The translations under genes were made by a program, and so were the position numbers. Positions 55,073-63,232 of a stretch of 63,232 bases of DNA are shown here, one piece after another (position 1 is the first letter of the stretch; each line of letters opens with the position of its first letter). The notes under the pieces are model-generated. The model worked only from the letters and a program-made list of their open reading frames with translations. It did not search any database and was not told the origin of the DNA. Source of the DNA: Desulfobulbaceae bacterium (GTDB lineage Bacteria > Desulfobacterota > Desulfobulbia > Desulfobulbales > SURF-16); assembly GCA_020444175.1 (NCBI GenBank), contig JAHLLM010000033.1:1-63232 (forward strand), in the 5' to 3' direction.

Positions 55073-55924
55073 ATGTATTTTCAGGATATTATCTTTGAAT
55101 TGAGTCGCTACTGGGCTGAGCAGGGTTGTGTCATTCAACAGCCATACGATATGGAGGTTGGGGCCGGAACTTTTCATCCTGCGACACTGCTCCGCGCTTT
55201 AGGGCCGGAACCATGGAAAGCCGCCTATGTACAGCCTTCAAGGCGCCCGACTGACGGCCGGTACGGTGAAAACCCCAATCGTTTGCAACATTATTATCAG
55301 TTTCAGGTTGTTTTAAAACCGTCACCTTCAAATTCTCAGGAGTTGTATTTGGAAAGCCTCAAACGTTTTCAGCTTGACCTTCTTAAGCATGATATCCGTT
55401 TTGTTGAGGATGACTGGGAATCACCGACACTTGGTGCCAGCGGCCTTGGGTGGGAGGTGTGGCTTGATGGTATGGAAATTACCCAGTTTACCTATTTTCA
55501 ACAGGCAGGAAGTCAGGAGCTTCATCCTGTTACCGTTGAGATCACGTATGGTCTTGAACGTATTGCAATGTATCTTCAGGGGGTAAACAGTGTCTATGAT
55601 ATTGCCTGGAATAATGAGGTTAAGTACGGTGATATTTTCCATCAAGCCGAAGTGGAGTTCTCTGCCTTTAACTTTGAGCACGCCAATGTTGATTTTCTTG
55701 TATCCTATTTTAATTCCTGTGAACAGGAGGCGCTTAACCTCCTTGAAAAGGATTTGATTTTACCAGCTTATGATTACTGCCTGAAATGCTCCCATACCTT
55801 TAATCTGCTTGATGCTCGTAAGGCTATCAGCGTTGCTGAACGAACAAGATATATTGGCAGAATCAGAAATATTGCCCGCAAGGTTGCGGAAAAGAAAGTC
55901 GGGCCAAAGGGTTCAGCCGAATAA
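55073..55924 (+). CDS. glyQ: Glycyl-tRNA synthetase alpha subunit
   Basis: Catalytic class II chain of the alpha2-beta2 bacterial enzyme. 283 residues, full length. Blocks [36 protein letters not shown] and [20 protein letters not shown] are diagnostic. AAGGGA precedes the ATG. The beta subunit gene glyS, normally the next gene, is absent: about 1 kb of non-coding DNA follows, then a SulP transporter. Confidence 0.95.
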
Positions 55925-56931
55925 ATCGGCGGTTTCGAAAAAAAACGGGCTGGGCTGCAGCGCGATGCGCGTGTAACGTTTTGATACTGCTGTTGTAGAC
56001 AGTTGGGCGCTGGCATTGTTTTTGGGGACTTCATTAATTTTTATTTTTCCCGGGTGAGGAAATTTTTTATCGTTGTCGGAAACAGAAATTTCTATCTAAA
56101 AATGCTCCTTATTCATTAAGAACAATATTTTTATGAAGAGAGGGGAGTTTTCTTCACCTGTATTTCTCTGCTCAAAGTATTCGCAATTATTTTTCTTTTT
56201 TTGGCAGGGTAAACTGCAATTTCCCCTTGACTTTCTCTGTAAGAGCGCTATGACTACCTGCTGGTTGTATCAAAAGTTGAACACTTAACCTGGATCATAC
56301 GACAAGGAGGCGCCACGCTATCATTAAATAGGCTGGCCCCGGTCCGTTGAGATTTATACTTTATACTTTTATATTTTCTATGAGGGAGGAGAGAAAAGAG
56401 GAGAGAAAACGTGATGTGCTGTTTATCAATGTAGTGATGAGATTTTGTGGATGCTGCAAAAAAACGGCAAAGAAAGTTTTGTTGTTTGTTTCAGCAGCAT
56501 TGTCTCATCCCCCCTCCGGGAACCGGAGTGCCGGGGCGAGTTTTGGGAGAGGACAGCTGGCTTTTTTATAAGATTCCGGCTTGAGCCAATGCAAGGCAAA
56601 TGTGACGCCGGAAGAATTTTGGGGATTAAGGGTTGGGGGACCTGTTTCTGGTTGACTTAGCCGGGAATACGAAGAATGATCAGTTGCTGGGAGGCTTTGA
56701 AGCTGGTCTGTTATTGTCTTAAAATGGCAAATTCTGGATATGTTGCCTGCCATTTATAATCTCTTGTGTCCAATCAGATTGAATTTCTCTCATATCTGAT
56801 CCATCCCAACGAGTTGAGTTTTGAGGTTGCCTCTTTTGTTCAGAGAAATGCGCCTCTCGAAAGTAGAATAAAACGTCGCATTTGGCTGTCAAAATGATTT
56901 GCAAATGCGGACAAGGATAGGTGTTTGTAAA
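55925..56931. other. About 1 kb without a supported gene
   Basis: Between glyQ and sulP. There is a promoter-like pair TTGACT/TATGAC (56,227-56,254, 16-bp spacing) and, 50 bp on, AAGGAGG without a start codon at the right distance. A purine-rich tract is at 56,382-56,409. A stem ATTCCGGC/GCCGGAA surrounds 56,571-56,617. Frames of 70-80 codons overlap each other on both strands and resemble no family. No trace of glyS is recognisable. Confidence 0.5.
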
Positions 56932-59136
56932 ATGATAACGAAAATATTTCCCTTTCTAGGTTGGTTTAAAGACTATAGCGGGAGTAAGTTCCAGATTGAT
57001 TTAATGGCTGGTATTACCGTGGCCATGGTTTTGATTCCGCAGTCAATGGCTTATGCTCAGTTGGCAGGTCTTCCTGCCTACTATGGTCTGTATGCTGCTT
57101 TCCTGCCGCCCATGGTGGCTGCGCTGTTTGGTTCCAGTCGTCAGTTGGCCACAGGTCCGGTTGCTGTTGTATCTTTGATGTCGGCTGCCTCTCTTGAGCC
57201 GCTAGCAACGGCAGGTGGGCCTGAATTCATTGCCTATTCAATTGTCCTTGCTGTTACAGTAGGGGTCTTTCAATTTTCTCTTGGTGTATTACGTCTTGGC
57301 ATGGTGGTAAACTTTTTATCACATCCGGTAATTAACGGTTTCACCAATGCGGCTGCCATCATTATTGCTTCTTCCCAGTTTTCAAAGTTCTTTGGCGTTT
57401 ATGTGGATAAAGCGCCCCACCATTATGAAACCATGATGAGAGTTGCTCAAGCTGCTCTGGATTATACCCATGTTCCCACTTTGCTGTATGGTGTTGGCGC
57501 GGTGGTTATTATGGTAACTTTAAAGAAGGTTAATCCCCGTATTCCCAATGTTTTGGTGGCTGTAGCTGTGACCACGGTGATTTCTTTATTGACCGGTTTT
57601 AATAATGATGCCCATGTTGATATCAGCAAGGTGCAACTTGAGGGTTTTAATCATAAGGTTGAAGAATTTAATCATGTAGTGGCTGAAATCGAGACAATTG
57701 GCGCTGAGCGGGCCGCGCTTGGTGTCAAGGTGGATGAGCAGAAAAAGCTTGAAACCGCTGGACACGGTATGTCCATCGAGATGATCCAGCTTGAAGCCGA
57801 AGTGGCCATGCTTACCTCTAAAATCAATGAAGCCAAGCATCATGCCCATCTTATCCGTGAAGAATTGCGTGATATGAAATTTGAGGCGGTAAAGACGGGT
57901 GAAGGTGATGCCGCGCAGTTTGCTTTTTACCCAAAAGAAGCAATTCCTGCCGGAATTGAAACCGATGGTGGAACCTGGCGCCTGAAAGTCAAAAATTCAC
58001 CACTTGATACCACTAACCTGACAATAATGGGTGGCGGAGCCATTGTAGGTAAAATACCTACAGGGCTGAGTTTCGCTTTGCCTGGCACGGTTAAGGATCC
58101 TGCCACAGGGGAAAAGATCGGCGAGAGTATTCTAAACATGAAAACTTTCATGAAGCTGTTGCCAACTGCTATTATTATCTCACTTCTTGGTTTTATGGAG
58201 GCCATTGCCATTGCCAAGGCCATGGCTGCCCAGACCGGTCAGAAGCTCGATGCGAATCAGGAGCTTATTGGTCAGGGACTTGGTAATATTGTTGGTTCTT
58301 TTGGCGGCTCTTACGCAGTTTCCGGTTCGTTTTCCCGTTCTGCGGTAAACCTGCAGGCTGGTGCGGTTTCCGGTGTTTCTTCAGTCGTAACATCCTTGGT
58401 GGTTGTCCTTACCCTCTACTTTTTTACTCCTTTACTGTACCATCTCCCCCAGGCAACACTGGCTGCGGTCATTATGATGGCGGTTATCGGACTGATTAAC
58501 ACCAAGGGGTTCTCACATGCCTGGAAAGCCCAGTGGTACGATGGTGCTATTTCCATTCTGAGTTTTGCGGTCACCCTCTATTTTGCCCCCCATCTTGATA
58601 AGGGTATTATGGTTGGTGTGGCTCTTTCCATGGCTGTCTTCCTTTACAAGTCCATGCGGCCTGTGGTTGCAAGTCTCTCCATGAATGAGGAGAACGTGCT
58701 TAAAAGCGCTGAACATTACCGCTTGAAAGGTTGCAGGCATATATCTGTTGTTCGTTTTGACGGGGCCCTCTTTTTTGCCAACGCAAGTTATCTTGACGAG
58801 CAGGTGGCAAAATTCCGTACTGAGCAGCCCGACCTCCGCTATATACTGCTTGATGCAAAAGGAATCAATGATATGGATGCTTCCGGTGAAGAGGCGTTGG
58901 CACTGCTTGTTGACCGGGTACGCAGTGCAAAGCTCGGTTTTGCAATGTGTGGCATAAAAGGTCAGGTCGTGGCTGTAATGGATCGGACCGGACTTACCAA
59001 TAAAATCGGCAAAGAGCACATCTATGCCGGCACGGAAGAGGCTGTCAGGTCCATTACCGATGAAATTCATCATGCCTCAGATCTGCCGCCGGAAGGCTGT
59101 AAGAACTGCCCATTGCTGAAGCATATTCCTGCATGA
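56932..59136 (+). CDS. SulP/SLC26 anion transporter with a large insertion and STAS domain
   Basis: 734 residues from ATG 56,932 (AAGGATAGG upstream; the frame opens at TTG 56,899). Transmembrane core includes DLMAGITVAMVLIPQSMAYA and GFMEAIAIAKAMAAQTGQ, then GGSYAVSGSFSRSAVN. The STAS domain is at about 620-715. Between the segment ending VISLLTGF and VGKIPTGLSFALPG, residues about 225-370 form an extra polar region with coiled-coil character (VEEFNHVVAEIETIGAERAA), absent from ordinary SulPs. The substrate may be sulfate, bicarbonate or another anion. A strong terminator follows. Confidence 0.93.
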   Translation: MITKIFPFLGWFKDYSGSKFQIDLMAGITVAMVLIPQSMAYAQLAGLPAYYGLYAAFLPPMVAALFGSSRQLATGPVAVVSLMSAASLEPLATAGGPEFIAYSIVLAVTVGVFQFSLGVLRLGMVVNFLSHPVINGFTNAAAIIIASSQFSKFFGVYVDKAPHHYETMMRVAQAALDYTHVPTLLYGVGAVVIMVTLKKVNPRIPNVLVAVAVTTVISLLTGFNNDAHVDISKVQLEGFNHKVEEFNHVVAEIETIGAERAALGVKVDEQKKLETAGHGMSIEMIQLEAEVAMLTSKINEAKHHAHLIREELRDMKFEAVKTGEGDAAQFAFYPKEAIPAGIETDGGTWRLKVKNSPLDTTNLTIMGGGAIVGKIPTGLSFALPGTVKDPATGEKIGESILNMKTFMKLLPTAIIISLLGFMEAIAIAKAMAAQTGQKLDANQELIGQGLGNIVGSFGGSYAVSGSFSRSAVNLQAGAVSGVSSVVTSLVVVLTLYFFTPLLYHLPQATLAAVIMMAVIGLINTKGFSHAWKAQWYDGAISILSFAVTLYFAPHLDKGIMVGVALSMAVFLYKSMRPVVASLSMNEENVLKSAEHYRLKGCRHISVVRFDGALFFANASYLDEQVAKFRTEQPDLRYILLDAKGINDMDASGEEALALLVDRVRSAKLGFAMCGIKGQVVAVMDRTGLTNKIGKEHIYAGTEEAVRSITDEIHHASDLPPEGCKNCPLLKHIPA

Positions 59137-59171: not shown

Positions 59172-59202
59172 AACCCCGGGCTGAACAGCCCGGGGTTTTT
59201 TT
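59172..59202 (+). terminator. Intrinsic terminator after sulP
   Basis: CCCCGGGCT-GAAC-AGCCCGGGG followed by TTTTTTT, starting about 36 bp past the stop. 9-bp perfect GC-rich stem. Confidence 0.93.
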
Positions 59203-59368
59203 ATTAAAATGCAATAATCACTCTGGGGCTCACATTCCCTATATTTTTTCAAAAGTTTGCCTTGTATAGGCTTCATCTTATTGCCCATAAGTTTGAGTTG
59301 CCAAGTATATGGATATTGGATAAAGAATCCCTTTTGTGGAGAATTTGCCGCGAAAATAAGATGAAAGC

Positions 59369-60754
59369 TTGAAAGAAAATGAAACCTACTTATCCCTAAG
59401 ACCGTTTGTTCGTATGAATTCTGTTTCCGTCCGCCCCATTAAGATTTTTCACATAATCGGCCCCTTCCAGCAATTTGTCAAAAAAGTTGTTACTGGAGGA
59501 TTTCTGCTCTTTGCAACAGCTGTTTTTTCGCTTGCCTGGGCAAATTTTTCACCTGATTCTTATACCCATTTCTGGCATATCGACCTGTCGATTTCTCTTG
59601 GGCCGTATTCGATAACCAAGTCCTTGGTGCATTGGATTGATGAAGCTCTTATGACGCTTTTCTTCTTTACCGTCGGGCTTGAAATTAAAAGAGAGGTCCT
59701 GGTGGGTGAGCTGGCCTCGGTCAAAAAGGCATTGTTGCCTGTTTCCGCAGCGTGTGGAGGTATGATTTTCCCTGCCGCTATTTATCTGTTTCTTAACTAC
59801 GGCACGGATGCCGCCCATGGCTGGGGTATCCCCATGGCCACTGATATTGCATTTGCCTTAGCGGTATTGTCCCTCCTTGGCCGCAGAGTTCCCTTTGGTG
59901 TACGAATTTTCCTGTCTGCCCTGGCCATTGCCGATGATCTTGGGGCGGTGGTTGTTATAGCCCTTTTTTACACTAAAACAATCAATATGGGCTATCTGGT
60001 GATTTCGCTCGTTTTTTTAGTCGCTCTAGCAGTTGCCAATTGGTTATGGCTGCGTCATGCTTTGCTTTATGCCTTGTTGGGGCTTGGGCTGTGGTTTTTT
60101 ATACTTGGTTCAGGTATCCATGCAACGGTGGCTGGAGTCATTGTCGCGTTGTTTATCCCGGCCCGGGCAAAATATGACACAGATACTTTTATACGGAAGG
60201 TCAGCAGCTATTTGGAGAAATTCAGATGCGAAAATGGTGAATGCGGCCATACAATATTACTTGACCAGAGTCACCTCGATGCTGTGCAGTCTATTGAGTT
60301 TGCCTGCCATCAAACTGAAACCCCTTTGCAGCGACTGGAGCATGGTTTGAACTCCTGGGTGGCCTATATTGTCCTTCCTCTTTTTGCCCTGGCCAATGCC
60401 GGTGTGGCGCTGGAGGGAGTCAATATAATGGATATATTGGCCAGCAATTTAACTCTTGGGGTCATTTTAGGTCTTTTGGTTGGTAAGCCTCTGGGGATTT
60501 TTCTCTTTACTTTTGCAACGGTAAAAATTTTTAAAATAAATTTAATTGGTGGAATAAACTGGGGACACATACTTGGGGCAAGCGTGTTGGGTGGTATAGG
60601 GTTTACAATGTCAATTTTTATTTCCGGTTTATCCTTCCCAGACATGCAGAGTGTTGAGTTGTCTAAATTCGGAATAGTCGCTGCTTCGTTTGTCTCCAGT
60701 TTGGTGGGGGTAACAATTCTGATGCTCTCCAGCAGAGGAGTTGGGGATACATAA
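59369..60754 (+). CDS. nhaA: Na+/H+ antiporter NhaA
   Basis: Electrogenic exchanger exporting Na+ for H+. About 461 residues, eleven to twelve hydrophobic segments. The paired aspartates of the ion site are in LAIADDLGAVVVIALFY, with upstream GWGIPMATDIAFALAVLSLLG. A hydrophilic loop between halves (about 265-315) is longer than in E. coli NhaA. The start is unclear: TTG 59,369 or ATG 59,414, and neither has a good ribosome site. The second sodium antiporter in the window. Confidence 0.93.
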   Translation: MKENETYLSLRPFVRMNSVSVRPIKIFHIIGPFQQFVKKVVTGGFLLFATAVFSLAWANFSPDSYTHFWHIDLSISLGPYSITKSLVHWIDEALMTLFFFTVGLEIKREVLVGELASVKKALLPVSAACGGMIFPAAIYLFLNYGTDAAHGWGIPMATDIAFALAVLSLLGRRVPFGVRIFLSALAIADDLGAVVVIALFYTKTINMGYLVISLVFLVALAVANWLWLRHALLYALLGLGLWFFILGSGIHATVAGVIVALFIPARAKYDTDTFIRKVSSYLEKFRCENGECGHTILLDQSHLDAVQSIEFACHQTETPLQRLEHGLNSWVAYIVLPLFALANAGVALEGVNIMDILASNLTLGVILGLLVGKPLGIFLFTFATVKIFKINLIGGINWGHILGASVLGGIGFTMSIFISGLSFPDMQSVELSKFGIVAASFVSSLVGVTILMLSSRGVGDT

Positions 60755-61081
60755 ATGCAGATTGGCGGATGGGGTATGACCTTGGCGGTATTGCTGCTTC
60801 GCTTACTCCAAAAAGCGTGATTGAAAATGGCCATAACGGAGTTTTTTTAAGAGAGGCGGAAAGACGGTTTCTGTCGAAATCACCCTTGCCATTGGTTAGA
60901 GTTTTCGCTACTGTTAGTTGATAGTGAAGTGTTTGCCTACAGGAGGCACGCGCAATAAAATCACGCTCATGCTGGTGGGTTACACGTGTCAGTTTGTGGC
61001 GGTCCGCTGACTCGGTAAAAATTTTGTGTGGTCAGTCGTTGATTCATTCCTTGTGCAACCGAAAGCAAGGAGGTGGTTACA
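60755..61081. other. 327-bp spacer, with repeat-like copy C
   Basis: No supported gene. TACACGTGTCAG...GGCGGTC...GACT at 60,981-61,012 resembles the repeat before topA, and ACTCGGTAAAAATTTT at 61,010-61,025 is identical to 24,181-24,196. Confidence 0.4.
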
Positions 61082-61312
61082 GTGATTTCTGGTTTTCTCA
61101 ACGTGGCAAAAAAAGTCCTACGCCAGGCCGTAAAGTTTGGCGTTGAAGAAGCTGGCGTTTGCGGCAAGGTAGGATGGGATGCTATTGAAACCTTGGTGCC
61201 GCCCGTCATTCAAGAACTTGAACAGCGCTACCCTGATCTGTTGTTAGTCCCCGAAAAAATGGATAAAGCAGAACATGACCTAAATACAGATATATCACTA
61301 CTGATCGTCTGA
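61082..61312 (+). CDS. Small hypothetical protein
   Basis: 76 residues, not recognised, no signal or membrane segment. GTG at 61,082 is placed by a near-perfect Shine-Dalgarno AAGGAGG (61,067-61,073) eight bases upstream; GTG 61,073 overlaps that site and is unlikely. Helical, with an amphipathic N-terminus (FLNVAKKVLRQAVKFG) and an acidic C-terminal half. Last chromosomal gene before the attachment site. Confidence 0.6.
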   Translation: MISGFLNVAKKVLRQAVKFGVEEAGVCGKVGWDAIETLVPPVIQELEQRYPDLLLVPEKMDKAEHDLNTDISLLIV

Positions 61313-61569
61313 ATTTGTTAATTAACTCTTTTGGGCGATTTTCTATGTTTCTTCGATCTGTGGGTAATTATTTTAATTCTAAGCAGCCAATTCTTAAATG
61401 AGTGTAATTAAGGGGTTTTTGGTCACATTCGACGCGAACTCGTTGGGCATTTCCTTGTGCAGAAGAGGCCAATTAAATTGAGATGTGAAAAATAAAAATT
61501 AAAAAAAATTAGTAAAGTACAACTAAAACTCGACTCGGTTGCCAAAAAATACTAAGAAACAATTTAGAT
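61313..61569. other. AT-rich spacer
   Basis: No frame, repeat or RNA recognised. Confidence 0.5.
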
Positions 61570-61630
61570 AAAAAAGGCCATTTATTTCTGGGGATAATCC
61601 CGGGGTACATTTCCAGAAACAAACTGGCCT
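61570..61630 (-). terminator. Intrinsic terminator of the original tRNA-Sec gene
   Basis: Read on minus: AGGCCA (61,630-61,625), CCAGAAA-type inner stem (TTTCTGG / CCAGAAA), then TGGCCT followed by TTTTTT (complement of 61,570-61,575). It lies 15 bp after the tRNA-Sec 3' end on the same strand, as expected for the tRNA terminator. Confidence 0.75.
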
Positions 61631-61645
61631 ATAGTATTGATAATA

Positions 61646-61669
61646 TGGCGGAAGTGCATGGGAATCGAA
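61646..61669 (-). other. attR: 3' part of tRNA-Sec (selC)
   Basis: On the minus strand this reads TTCGATT (T-loop), CCCAT (3' T-stem), GCACTTCC (eight-base 3' acceptor strand), G, CCA. An 8-bp acceptor and G73-CCA fit tRNA-Sec. The 5' T-stem partner (ATGGG expected) is not present; GGTTAG stands there instead, so homology to a tRNA stops at the T-loop. This is the truncated copy left at one end of an integrated element that targeted the 3' end of selC. Confidence 0.8.
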
Positions 61670-61790
61670 CTAACCCACCGCCATGTAACCTCTTAAGTTG
61701 ACTATTCTTTTTTGCGGCATAACTTTTTTGGGGAAAGTTTCGGGAAAGAAACAATATAATTGAACTGAACCATCCTGTTAAAAAAGAAAA

Positions 61791-61850
61791 GCCCTATGGT
61801 CTACCCCAGCACTTTTATGCATAGCTTGGGTGTCGCATAGGGCGTTTTTT
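61791..61850. terminator. Bidirectional terminator at the integrase 3' side
   Basis: Stem GCCCTATG / CATAGGGC with an inner ACCCCAGC / GCTTGGGT stem. TTTTTT follows on plus and TTTTCTTTTTT on minus. It ends integrase transcription and insulates the element from the chromosome. Confidence 0.8.
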
Positions 61851-61916
61851 ACAAGTATAATATATAGACAAAATCTAAACAAAAAAGGATCGTCCCATCA
61901 AGATAATTTTTTATTG

Positions 61917-63029
61917 TTAACTTTTCTTTAACGGTACTTCTGGAAAAGAAATAATGTTTTTATTCATTAGCTCCCGCTTTCTTGCAACTTCCATTCTTGC
62001 GTACTTCTTAACTGAATCCAGCCGGGCATGGTCGGTAATCTCTTGAAGATCAGAAAGAGATAAACCGCATTCATTTACATACTGACTGCAGGATGAATGC
62101 TTCAAGCCTGCATACATTGAAATATCTTCACCGACCTTCTCACAAGCATTGTTCCACAATCTATTCATTATTCTGTCAGTATAACGTTTTCCCTCAGATC
62201 GCGAAGTTTTACAGGTAAAAAAATATTTACTGACACTAACTGGCATCTTCTTCATAATTGGCAAAAAAACAGGGTGACACGGTATAATATGTTCTTTTTT
62301 GGTTTTCGTAAAATCGACAACTTTTCTTGCTGAAATACCATGTCTTATAATGAATGAATCATATTCTTTGTTGTAATCAACACGATGCAACGACATAGCT
62401 TCAGAAGGTCGTCTTAAATGATATTTTAGCCACCAAAAAATTGGTTGATGTTCAGAAGGTATCGCTTCGATTATTTTTATCTGTCTATCACTCGGAAGCC
62501 ATTGAATAACAGGCTCAGTTATTTGATATAATTTCTTTTCAGGAAAAGGTGGGACTTCTGAAATACGTTTAGATTGCCACGCATATTTCAGACACGCATG
62601 AAGGCAATACATGACATTAAGTTTGCCCTTCCCGGAACGATTAATAGATTTCAGTAATTTTCGTAATACATCATACTGAATTTCATGAAGCTGAAAAAAA
62701 TGCTCAGTAAAGAAAGGTTTAAGGTGATTACGAATACTATTGCTATAATCCTTGTATGTGGCCGGTGAAACATCATCTTTAATGACATCAAGCCATTCAA
62801 AAAGATAAGGGACTGTATCAGTCCAACCGCTAAGTAAAAATTTTTCTATCCTAAATGTTCCATTCTCATAATCACCCTGCATGGTCGAAAGTAATTTTTG
62901 AGCAATTTTTTTAGAATAGATAATTTCCCCTTTGTATCGATAAATTTTATAAGACTTGTTAGAAAATATGTCCCACCAGTTAACAAACCAAACGCCACGG
63001 TCTTTTCTATAATGAATAGAACCTTTCAT
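61917..63029 (-). CDS. Tyrosine-family site-specific integrase
   Basis: 370 residues from ATG 63,029 (AAGGGGGAAT upstream; the frame opens at 63,116). SAM-like core-binding region at about 65-160, catalytic domain to the end. The first arginine is in LRRPSEAMSL, and the nucleophile Tyr343 is in VKKYARM. The usual H-x-x-R box reads AGLKHSS, so the arginine is replaced by lysine and the histidine by alanine; DHA follows where LGH is usual. AT-rich compared with neighbours, which suits an acquired element. It lies next to a tRNA-Sec fragment. Confidence 0.88.
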   Translation of the reverse strand: MKGSIHYRKDRGVWFVNWWDIFSNKSYKIYRYKGEIIYSKKIAQKLLSTMQGDYENGTFRIEKFLLSGWTDTVPYLFEWLDVIKDDVSPATYKDYSNSIRNHLKPFFTEHFFQLHEIQYDVLRKLLKSINRSGKGKLNVMYCLHACLKYAWQSKRISEVPPFPEKKLYQITEPVIQWLPSDRQIKIIEAIPSEHQPIFWWLKYHLRRPSEAMSLHRVDYNKEYDSFIIRHGISARKVVDFTKTKKEHIIPCHPVFLPIMKKMPVSVSKYFFTCKTSRSEGKRYTDRIMNRLWNNACEKVGEDISMYAGLKHSSCSQYVNECGLSLSDLQEITDHARLDSVKKYARMEVARKRELMNKNIISFPEVPLKKS

Positions 63030-63116
63030 GCATATTCCCCCTTTTTCAGAAGGAATACTTTTGCGTTTTGTTTTTGTCAACAGGTTCAAGTTTAATGCTC
63101 CAACGAATCCTAACAA

Positions 63117-63232
63117 GTGACCCAGGGCGGCGCCGGGCTGATCAGCGCGCCGGTTGTTAATTTTTCTTTTTTGAGGCTCTGTAACTTGTTGAAATTATTA
63201 AGGCCAAAAAATGATAAAAATTTAACAAGAAA
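63117..63232. other. Integrase upstream region, right end of window
   Basis: A GC-rich palindromic cluster with the perfect GCTGATCAGC at 63,137-63,146 flanked by GGCGCCGG and CGCGCCGG stands out in AT-rich DNA. It may hold integrase or excisionase binding sites. The element continues beyond the window. Confidence 0.35.

What the first reader, a model, noticed from the sequence alone, without database searches (positions are those of the whole stretch)
61570..63232. Left border of an integrative island in the tRNA-Sec gene
A tRNA-Sec 3' fragment (T-loop to CCA), then its terminator, lie on one side; an integrase gene lies on the other side and on the same strand. The 5' T-stem does not pair, so the tRNA is not intact here. 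Geometry predicts the intact selC, regenerated by the incoming element, at the far end of the island to the right. What the island carries is unseen. selC is a known integration site in enterobacteria.
Basis: partly seen in the sequence, partly recalled or inferred. Interest (0 to 1): 0.75.

Follow-up and report, generated by a model that had tools for sequence, protein, structure and literature searches.

The report
Filamentous prophage inserted in tRNA-Sec gene
A mobile element, most likely a filamentous bacterial virus, is inserted in this bacterium's selenocysteine tRNA gene; its recombinase belongs to a family that reuses exactly this address in related bacteria, sometimes bringing defence-type genes.

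Summary
Confirmed. Window 61646-61670 is an exact 25-bp copy of the 3' end of the genome's only intact selC, followed by a tyrosine-integrase gene (61917-63029, minus). The window is one whole contig (C12), ending just past int; the intact selC lies on contig C44, in the predicted orientation. Relatives carry glyQ-(SulP)-selC unbroken, i.e. the empty site. The contig gap is bridged only indirectly: a paired 11-bp-spaced repeat flanks both cores and occurs nowhere else in the genome, and relative G182 has a matching element in one piece, 16.5 kb: int (70% identical), Rep-like gene, secretin, Zot, CI-like repressor, cargo, RelE/HTH pair, selC. C44 shows the same repressor-cargo-RelE/HTH-selC order. 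So the island is most likely a filamentous (inovirus-like) prophage; its middle was not found in the assembly. Corrections: the hairpin left of the fragment is the end of an OLDER selC element, not selC's own terminator, so inserted DNA probably starts near 59203 and includes nhaA; and the element belongs to a selC-specific integrase family of mostly Desulfobacterota-type bacteria. In that family int lies on either side of a fixed attP, Arg-II is Lys, and several small elements carry defence-type genes.

The parts
61646..61670 (-). Displaced 3' end of selC (25-bp att core); boundary between older DNA on the left and the newer element on the right
   Evidence: Exact copy of the 3' end of the intact selC on C44; only two genome hits at up to 3 mismatches
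61728..61748 (+). Right-hand arm-type repeat pair of attP (11-bp spacing); partner at C44:4532-4552
   Evidence: Only two places in the genome at up to 2 mismatches; spacing 11 in 19 of 25 arm stretches of the family
61917..63029 (-). selC-specific tyrosine integrase (ATG at 63029; frame open to a TTG at 63116), 3' end facing the fragment
   Evidence: Pfam PF00589 and PF14659; homologues beside the selC core; AlphaFold model matches Tn1549 and lambda integrases, Z 16-17
63030..63232 (.). Region upstream of int, then the end of contig C12; the rest of the element is not in the window
   Evidence: C12 is 63232 bp long; its last 200 bp match nothing else in the genome
61581..61645 (.). selC-proximal end of an older selC-inserted element: arm-like GGGG pair (61590-61593 and 61602-61605, spacing 12) and hairpin
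   Evidence: 79% over 100 bp (61581-61679, core included) to the selC-adjacent element end of G014, which has a spacing-11 pair at -57 and a displaced core remnant
59203..61580 (.). Probable body of the older insertion, holding nhaA and a small ORF; no displaced core of its own found
   Evidence: Absent from G001, where selC starts 80 bp after the SulP match; best remnant has 9 mismatches
59369..60754 (+). nhaA, Na+/H+ antiporter, probably cargo of the older insertion
   Evidence: NCBIfam TIGR00773 above cut-off; in the 12 relatives with a match it lies on a different contig from selC
61073..61312 (+). 79-aa ORF of unknown function inside the older insertion
   Evidence: ORF list; no family search made
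59174..59202 (.). Native SulP/selC hairpin terminator, marking the original selC junction
   Evidence: Counterpart directly precedes selC in G001, G017, G019 and G020
56899..59136 (+). SulP permease, chromosomal flank
   Evidence: NCBIfam TIGR00815; next to selC in G001, G017, G019, G020
55073..55924 (+). glyQ, chromosomal flank and anchor of the selC locus
   Evidence: Found in the selC stretch of 16 of 20 family genomes and of G039 and G063

Best explanation
61646-63232 is the left end (attachment core, right arm, int) of an element integrated at the 3' end of selC by its own tyrosine integrase. The element supplied a new 25-bp selC 3' end, so the gene stays intact at the far end (C44), and pushed the host's old 3' end to 61646. 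By synteny with G182 it is a filamentous (inovirus-like) prophage: int, Rep-like gene, secretin, Zot ATPase and probably coat genes, then a CI-like repressor, a variable cargo slot (DUF2254-like here), a RelE/HTH toxin-antitoxin pair, and the regenerated selC. It sits beside an older selC insertion that probably brought nhaA. Mode of action: Int binds the 25-bp core with its catalytic and core-binding domains and the arm repeats with its N-terminal domain, recombines attP with selC, and reverses this to release a circle for rolling-circle replication. Shown: core copies, int, arms, empty sites, syntenic intact element in G182. Inferred: C12-C44 continuity, phage genes in the unseen middle, binding roles, activity, excision, replication.
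For: Two exact cores only. Intact selC on C44. Empty site: the glyQ or SulP match ends 18-238 bp from selC in 13 of 20 family loci, 1.6-2.7 kb away in 3, and cannot be judged in 4; the ORF on C44's other side of selC lies beside selC in 20 of 20. Arm repeat only on C12 and C44; the window's right arm matches C44's left arm best of 16 candidates, 18 of 20 against 16 for the next. G182: 16,452 bp core to core, intact tRNA-SeC at its end, int 70%, CI-like 37%, RelE 68%, HTH 74%, in the same order as C44; Zot, Secretin and Phage_CI_repr domains, M13-pIV-type and Zot PHROGs; 8,832 bp of it is an IMG/VR viral contig at 100%. GC: element ends 35.7% and 38.9%, window up to 59205 45.1%, rest of C44 48.8%.
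Against: No contig joins C12 to C44 and their ends share no overlap. tblastn of G182's phage proteins finds nothing better than E 0.36 in the own-genome stretches read (1.61 Mb: all of every other contig up to 31.1 kb and the first 20 kb of longer ones), and the Rep family PF23343 has no own-genome match. So Zot and coat genes are not seen here. G182 has one more ORF (327 aa) between the RelE/HTH pair and selC than C44. Relatives of about 5 kb bounded by two cores in other genomes gave no Zot or phage-secretin match, so this element could also be a non-phage type.
Confidence: 0.76

Rival explanations
1. A short integrative element of about 3-12 kb (int, often a Rep and a small ribbon-helix-helix-like protein, plus defence or toxin-antitoxin cargo) rather than a phage. 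The repressor and RelE/HTH pair on C44 would be shared accessory genes.
For: Elements with the same integrase family bounded by two selC cores span 3.4 kb (L097), 4.7-5.3 kb (L102, L111, L112, L115) and 12.4 kb (L109), and inside them no Zot or phage-secretin match was found. No Zot or coat genes found in the own-genome stretches read.
Against: The closest full match to both C44's gene order and the window's int is the Zot/secretin-bearing G182 element. The small elements gave no match to the CI-like and RelE/HTH proteins.
Confidence: 0.2
2. C12's right end and C44's left end belong to two different elements in tandem at selC, so the window's int is not from the element that regenerated selC.
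For: An older insertion is already present on the left, so tandem arrays occur at this locus.
Against: Only one homologue of this int in the genome, only two core copies, and arm repeats specific to these two ends.
Confidence: 0.1
3. Assembly or binning artefact: the int end of C12 was joined by error or comes from another strain.
For: The contig breaks 116 bp past the int reading frame; three public relatives also break within or close to the 5' end of int (L101, L105, L113).
Against: Fragment, arm and int together reproduce the architecture of independent genomes; listed completeness 100 and contamination 1.62.
Confidence: 0.03

Closest known systems
Pf-tRNA-Sec filamentous prophages of Pseudomonas aeruginosa (PMC7549136, passages read)
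   Same: Filamentous prophage with its own tyrosine integrase, inserted at the 3' end of tRNA-Sec with a 27-bp att core
   Different: No match of the window integrase in the phage-record collection; different core letters; here an attP-linked CI/cargo/RelE-HTH slot and paired arm repeats with 11-bp spacing (arm repeats of Pf were not examined)
Cryptic inoviruses (PMC6813254, passages read)
   Same: pI/Zot-marked genomes, att sites in tRNA genes, toxin-antitoxin cargo; the host figure names Deltaproteobacteria; the G182 element overlaps an IMG/VR viral contig
   Different: The catalogued 8,832-bp contig covers only int to beyond the 596-aa gene; bounded by its att cores the prophage is 16.5 kb and includes repressor, cargo and RelE/HTH pair
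tDNA genomic islands (Islander, PMC4383910, passages read) and selC insertions of E. coli (PMC6174562, abstract start in the listing)
   Same: Regenerated tRNA gene and same-orientation displaced fragment mark the ends; integrase inside
   Different: Not enterobacterial; in this family int lies on the fragment side in nine cases and on the tRNA side in nine

Membership tests
tRNA-gene genomic island (Islander criteria) | Intact tDNA plus displaced 3' fragment in the same orientation | tested here: met
   both cores on the same strand of C12 and C44 when placed end to end
tRNA-gene genomic island (Islander criteria) | Integrase gene between fragment and tRNA on one continuous replicon | tested here: inconclusive
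   int lies on the element side of the fragment, but C12 and C44 are separate contigs with no overlap; met in G039, G063 and G182
Filamentous phage (inovirus-like) | Zot/pI morphogenesis ATPase and pIV secretin | tested here: inconclusive
   Present in the syntenic G182 element; not found in the own-genome stretches read
Filamentous phage (inovirus-like) | Rolling-circle replication initiator | tested here: inconclusive
   PF23343 absent from the own genome; G182's 450-aa protein has no Pfam match and only a weak PHROG 'endonuclease' match but resembles the 397-aa protein of L115, 29%
Filamentous phage (inovirus-like) | Small coat proteins and virion production | not tested
   Coat genes were not sought as such; virions need an experiment
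Tyrosine recombinase superfamily | Fold and Pfam Phage_integrase domain | tested here: met
   model Z 16.7, rmsd 3.5 over 259 residues to Tn1549 integrase
Tyrosine recombinases with the canonical R-K-H-R-H-Y active site | Arg-II of the HxxR motif | tested here: not met
   Lys at this position in 23 of 24 homologues, Arg in L116; aligned to the Arg of a XerC-like chain, 4a8e (E 1e-4), and of P2 integrase 5dor (E 1.2, not significant)
Pf-tRNA-Sec phage integrases | Sequence homology of the integrase | tested here: inconclusive
   tblastn of the window integrase against 50,697 phage records gave no match at 1e-10, but I did not check that a Pf-tRNA-Sec genome is among them, and weaker kinship was not sought

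The most novel reading that the evidence does not exclude
In Desulfobacterota and neighbours, one clade of selC-dedicated integrases (Lys at Arg-II) serves both filamentous phages and elements of about 5 kb (Rep, ribbon-helix-helix-like protein, defence-type cargo) that behave as their satellites: same chromosomal address, same attP geometry, swappable cargo, with int moved repeatedly from one side of attP to the other.
Probability: 0.2. Interest if true: 0.7.

Novelty: new variant of a known kind. Interest (0 to 1): 0.46.

Why it matters
It turns a border guess into an identified class of element. A single address (selC, needed to read Sec codons such as the in-frame TGA of the formate dehydrogenase gene on C44) is used by one integrase clade in several anaerobe lineages, with a constant core and changing arm sequences. 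That is a natural series for working out how the N-terminal domain reads its arm sites and whether a tyrosine recombinase can work with Lys in place of Arg-II. Because several small elements carry restriction-modification, PD-T4-9-like or DUF3800 genes, selC is a place to look for defence genes in sulfate reducers and syntrophs. It also shows one catalogued viral contig that is about half of the att-bounded prophage.

Tried and rejected
Own-genome middle of the element: searched with a 200-bp probe of each contig end, the Rep family PF23343 and tblastn with G182 phage proteins and small-element Rep/RHH-like proteins; best E 0.36. Idea that the attachment core is inverted in half of the family: rejected, because the best 11-spaced pair starts 56-62 bp left of the core in 12 of 14 left arms (not L108, L110) and 54-62 bp right of it in 10 of 11 right arms (not L116), whichever side int is on; strand matching of arms between the two types was only weakly in favour (72 wins, 47 losses, 37 ties of 156 pairs). 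Own-arm matching is weak for L102 and L111 (14 of 20, equal to or one above the reverse-complement control). Strong matches to the integrase are rare: 6 of 257 class genomes at 1e-40 and 3 of 395 phylum genomes at 1e-60, own genome included in both. Against exclusive use of selC: the weaker homologues in G121 (3 genes) and G126 show no core; L114 shows none; L118 and G456 (L130) show none, but their contigs end soon after int. Sequence search of the PDB with A1 gave nothing at E 0.01. A chance origin of the fragment was rejected. Native-terminator reading of the left hairpin was rejected. Of 17 loci, L117 (partial, contig end) was not scanned for the core; L116, L117 and L121 were not in the tree. 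G063 and L102 are the same contig, and G377 and L110 appear to be, so they are not counted twice. The selC copy beside the L111 element lacks its 5' half (ARAGORN finds none; sequence), so that element is bounded by two cores but not by an intact gene.

Full report
OBSERVATION. The window is a complete contig (G000:C12, 63,232 bp) of an unnamed 5.42-Mb genome. Bases 61646-61670 are a 25-bp copy of the 3' end of tRNA-Sec (minus strand). A 24-mer of it with up to 3 mismatches occurs only here and in the intact selC of contig C44. C44 holds the only Rfam tRNA-Sec match over cut-off in the genome and ARAGORN calls it tRNA-SeC. The window itself has no tRNA call. The integrase ORF 61917-63116 (minus; ATG at 63029) matches Phage_integrase and Phage_int_SAM_3.

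THE EMPTY SITE. I took up to 20 kb around selC from 20 genomes of the same family. In 13 of 20 the glyQ or SulP match ends 18-238 bp before selC. In 3 (G007, G009, G014) 1.6-2.7 kb intervene. In 4 (G006, G010, G015, G021) no such gene lies on that side of the stretch, so they cannot be judged. The small ORF on the other side of selC in C44 is beside selC in all 20. In the same-genus genome G001 the order is glyQ - SulP - 80 bp - selC. The left chromosome arm in the window (glyQ, SulP) and the right arm on C44 are therefore neighbours in relatives.

AN OLDER INSERTION. In the window nhaA and a small ORF stand between SulP and the fragment, and the counterpart of the SulP terminator that directly precedes selC in G001, G017, G019 and G020 is at 59174-59202. 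Window 61581-61679, with most of the hairpin, aligns at 79% over 100 bp to the DNA beside selC in G014, where a perfect 11-spaced arm pair sits at -57 and a displaced core remnant (3 mismatches) lies 0.8 kb away. I conclude that the end of an earlier selC element is preserved at 61581-61645 and that nhaA probably came with it. No displaced core of that older element was found (best 9 mismatches), its own GGGG pair has spacing 12 rather than 11, and nhaA has chromosome-like GC (45.4%), so this part is less certain.

THE NEWER ELEMENT AND ITS FAR END. C44:1-4590, left of selC, encodes a truncated CI-like protein (no Pfam match of its own; kinship), a DUF2254-like membrane protein (just under Pfam's cut-off) and a RelE-type/HTH pair. 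GC is 38.9%, against 48.8% for the rest of C44. The sequences flanking the two cores share a repeat pair, TTGGGGAAAGTTT(C/G)GGGAA(A/T)G, found nowhere else in the genome at up to 2 mismatches. Of 25 arm stretches from 18 family loci, 19 have such a pair at 11-bp spacing (at least 7 of 8 matches) against a mean of 0.93 in 100 base shuffles; no other spacing from 6 to 20 gives more than 5. In 6 of the 7 elements with both ends, window/C44 included, the right arm's best left-arm match among 16 is its own; L097 is the exception at rank 4, and L102 and L111 win only with weak scores.

G182 HAS SUCH AN ELEMENT IN ONE PIECE. There glyQ is followed by the displaced core, an integrase 70% identical to the window's, then a 450-aa Rep-like protein, a Secretin protein, a Zot protein, further genes, a CI-like repressor, cargo genes, a RelE/HTH pair, one more ORF of 327 aa and intact selC; 16,452 bp from core to core. 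PHROGs name the secretin as M13 protein IV-type and the ATPase as Zot-like. The CI-like protein is 37% identical to C44's, the RelE protein 68% and the HTH protein 74%, in the same order relative to selC. An IMG/VR viral contig of 8,832 bp is identical to L131:5775-14606. By synteny the window's element is a filamentous prophage whose middle is missing from the assembly; I did not find it in the stretches read.

THE INTEGRASE FAMILY. One scan of the collection of 84,980 species genomes gave 17 loci. In 15 the selC core with at most 1 mismatch lies in the locus, L114 has none, and L117 was not scanned. Adding the window, G039 and G182 gives 18 selC cases. In nine, int's 3' end points to the selC side (L101, L102, L103, L105, L108, L109, L110, L113, L115). 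In nine it points to the fragment side (window, G039, L104, L106, L107, L111, L112, L116, G182). In L107 and L109 the nearest core in that direction is missing or 2 kb off, so those two are weaker. On a tree of 18 integrases (9 and 7 labelled, 2 unlabelled) the labels are not clades: at least 3 changes are forced by well-supported branches, 5 on the best tree, no fewer than in shuffles (219 and 238 of 500 as low). The arms keep their place relative to selC in both classes, so it is the int gene, not the attachment site, that has changed sides. Lys stands at the Arg-II position in 23 of 24 homologues, which include some not at selC; alignment to a XerC-like chain (E 1e-4) and, below significance, to P2 integrase puts it there. 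The conserved att scars suggest that these enzymes work, but activity was not tested. The AlphaFold model (mean pLDDT 80.7, under 50 at residues 338-348) resembles Tn1549 integrase (Z 16.7, rmsd 3.5, 259 residues) and lambda integrase.

CARGO. Ten hand-picked proteins went to PADLOC. Among elements bounded by two cores, L111 carries a cytosine methylase, HNH and Vsr, L112 two proteins of PD-T4-9 type, L102 a DUF3800 protein and L109 (12.4 kb) an OLD/AriA-like ATPase; two proteins of L115 and C44's DUF2254-like protein gave no PADLOC match, and L097's cargo was not scanned. L103, whose far end is unseen, has a bSEFIR protein 3.6 kb from int. L102 carries a REP_ORF2-G2P protein, L111 one just under the cut-off; L112's Rep is 45% identical to L111's, and L115's is related to the G182 phage Rep at 29%. 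Other members sit beside phage-type replication or DNA-modification genes (L104, L106, L108, L110). One integrase clade therefore serves several kinds of element.

LITERATURE. Searches on selC islands with Desulfo- terms, tRNA-Sec with tyrosine recombinase, selC with hotspot and defence terms, selC with genomic islands, and filamentous phage with selC showed, in the titles and abstract starts listed (lists capped), nothing on selC elements in these bacteria; the library holds open-licence papers only. Closest are Pf-tRNA-Sec phages (PMC7549136, passages), cryptic inoviruses (PMC6813254, passages), a Pf-borne defence module (PMC11341870, passages) and Islander (PMC4383910, passages). PD-T4-9 as a tested defence system, the HxxR motif and the roles of lambda-type arm sites are from recall.

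VERDICT. The finding is real and correctly read in outline. Integration at selC is near certain; filamentous-prophage identity is likely (about 0.75); the satellite relation of the small elements is an open and testable idea.

Noticed in passing
L012 4591-4688, L014-L043, L101-L115, L233: The selC 3' 25-mer is identical in 29 of 30 order-level loci (L020 differs), yet the 5' strand GGAAGTGG seen there leaves a G-G at acceptor pair 8, while eight of the named loci (L101, L103, L105, L109, L110, L112, L113, L115) have GGAAGTGC, which pairs. Repeated overwriting of the 3' end by elements is one possible cause.
   Followed up: partly
L131 5775-14606 versus L131 4952 to L233 2402: The IMG/VR contig for this filamentous prophage begins at the int stop codon and ends before the repressor; the att-bounded prophage is almost twice as long.
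   Followed up: yes
L090 9197-9996 (G014): An 0.8-kb remnant element between a decayed core (3 mismatches) and intact selC, with a perfect arm pair and no integrase-sized ORF.
   Followed up: partly
L111 6011-6110: The selC copy beside this restriction-modification element lacks its 5' half; no tRNA is called in the locus. A second insertion or a deletion may have broken the gene.
   Followed up: no
window 56899-59136: The SulP permease has an insertion between its two NCBIfam-matched parts that looks coiled-coil by eye; the same-genus G001 copy is 87% identical.
   Followed up: no
window 55073-56898: No glyS-like large ORF directly follows glyQ in the window's ORF lists.
   Followed up: no
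L012 16326-19127: The formate dehydrogenase-like frame on C44 reads through one in-frame TGA (residue 201), as expected of a selenoprotein, about 12 kb from selC.
   Followed up: partly
G000:C54 69113-69196 (L004): A tRNA-Leu flanked on its 3' side by GGGGAGAGGATGGGGAGAG, an 11-spaced arm-like pair seen by eye: possibly another tRNA-targeting element in the same genome.
   Followed up: no
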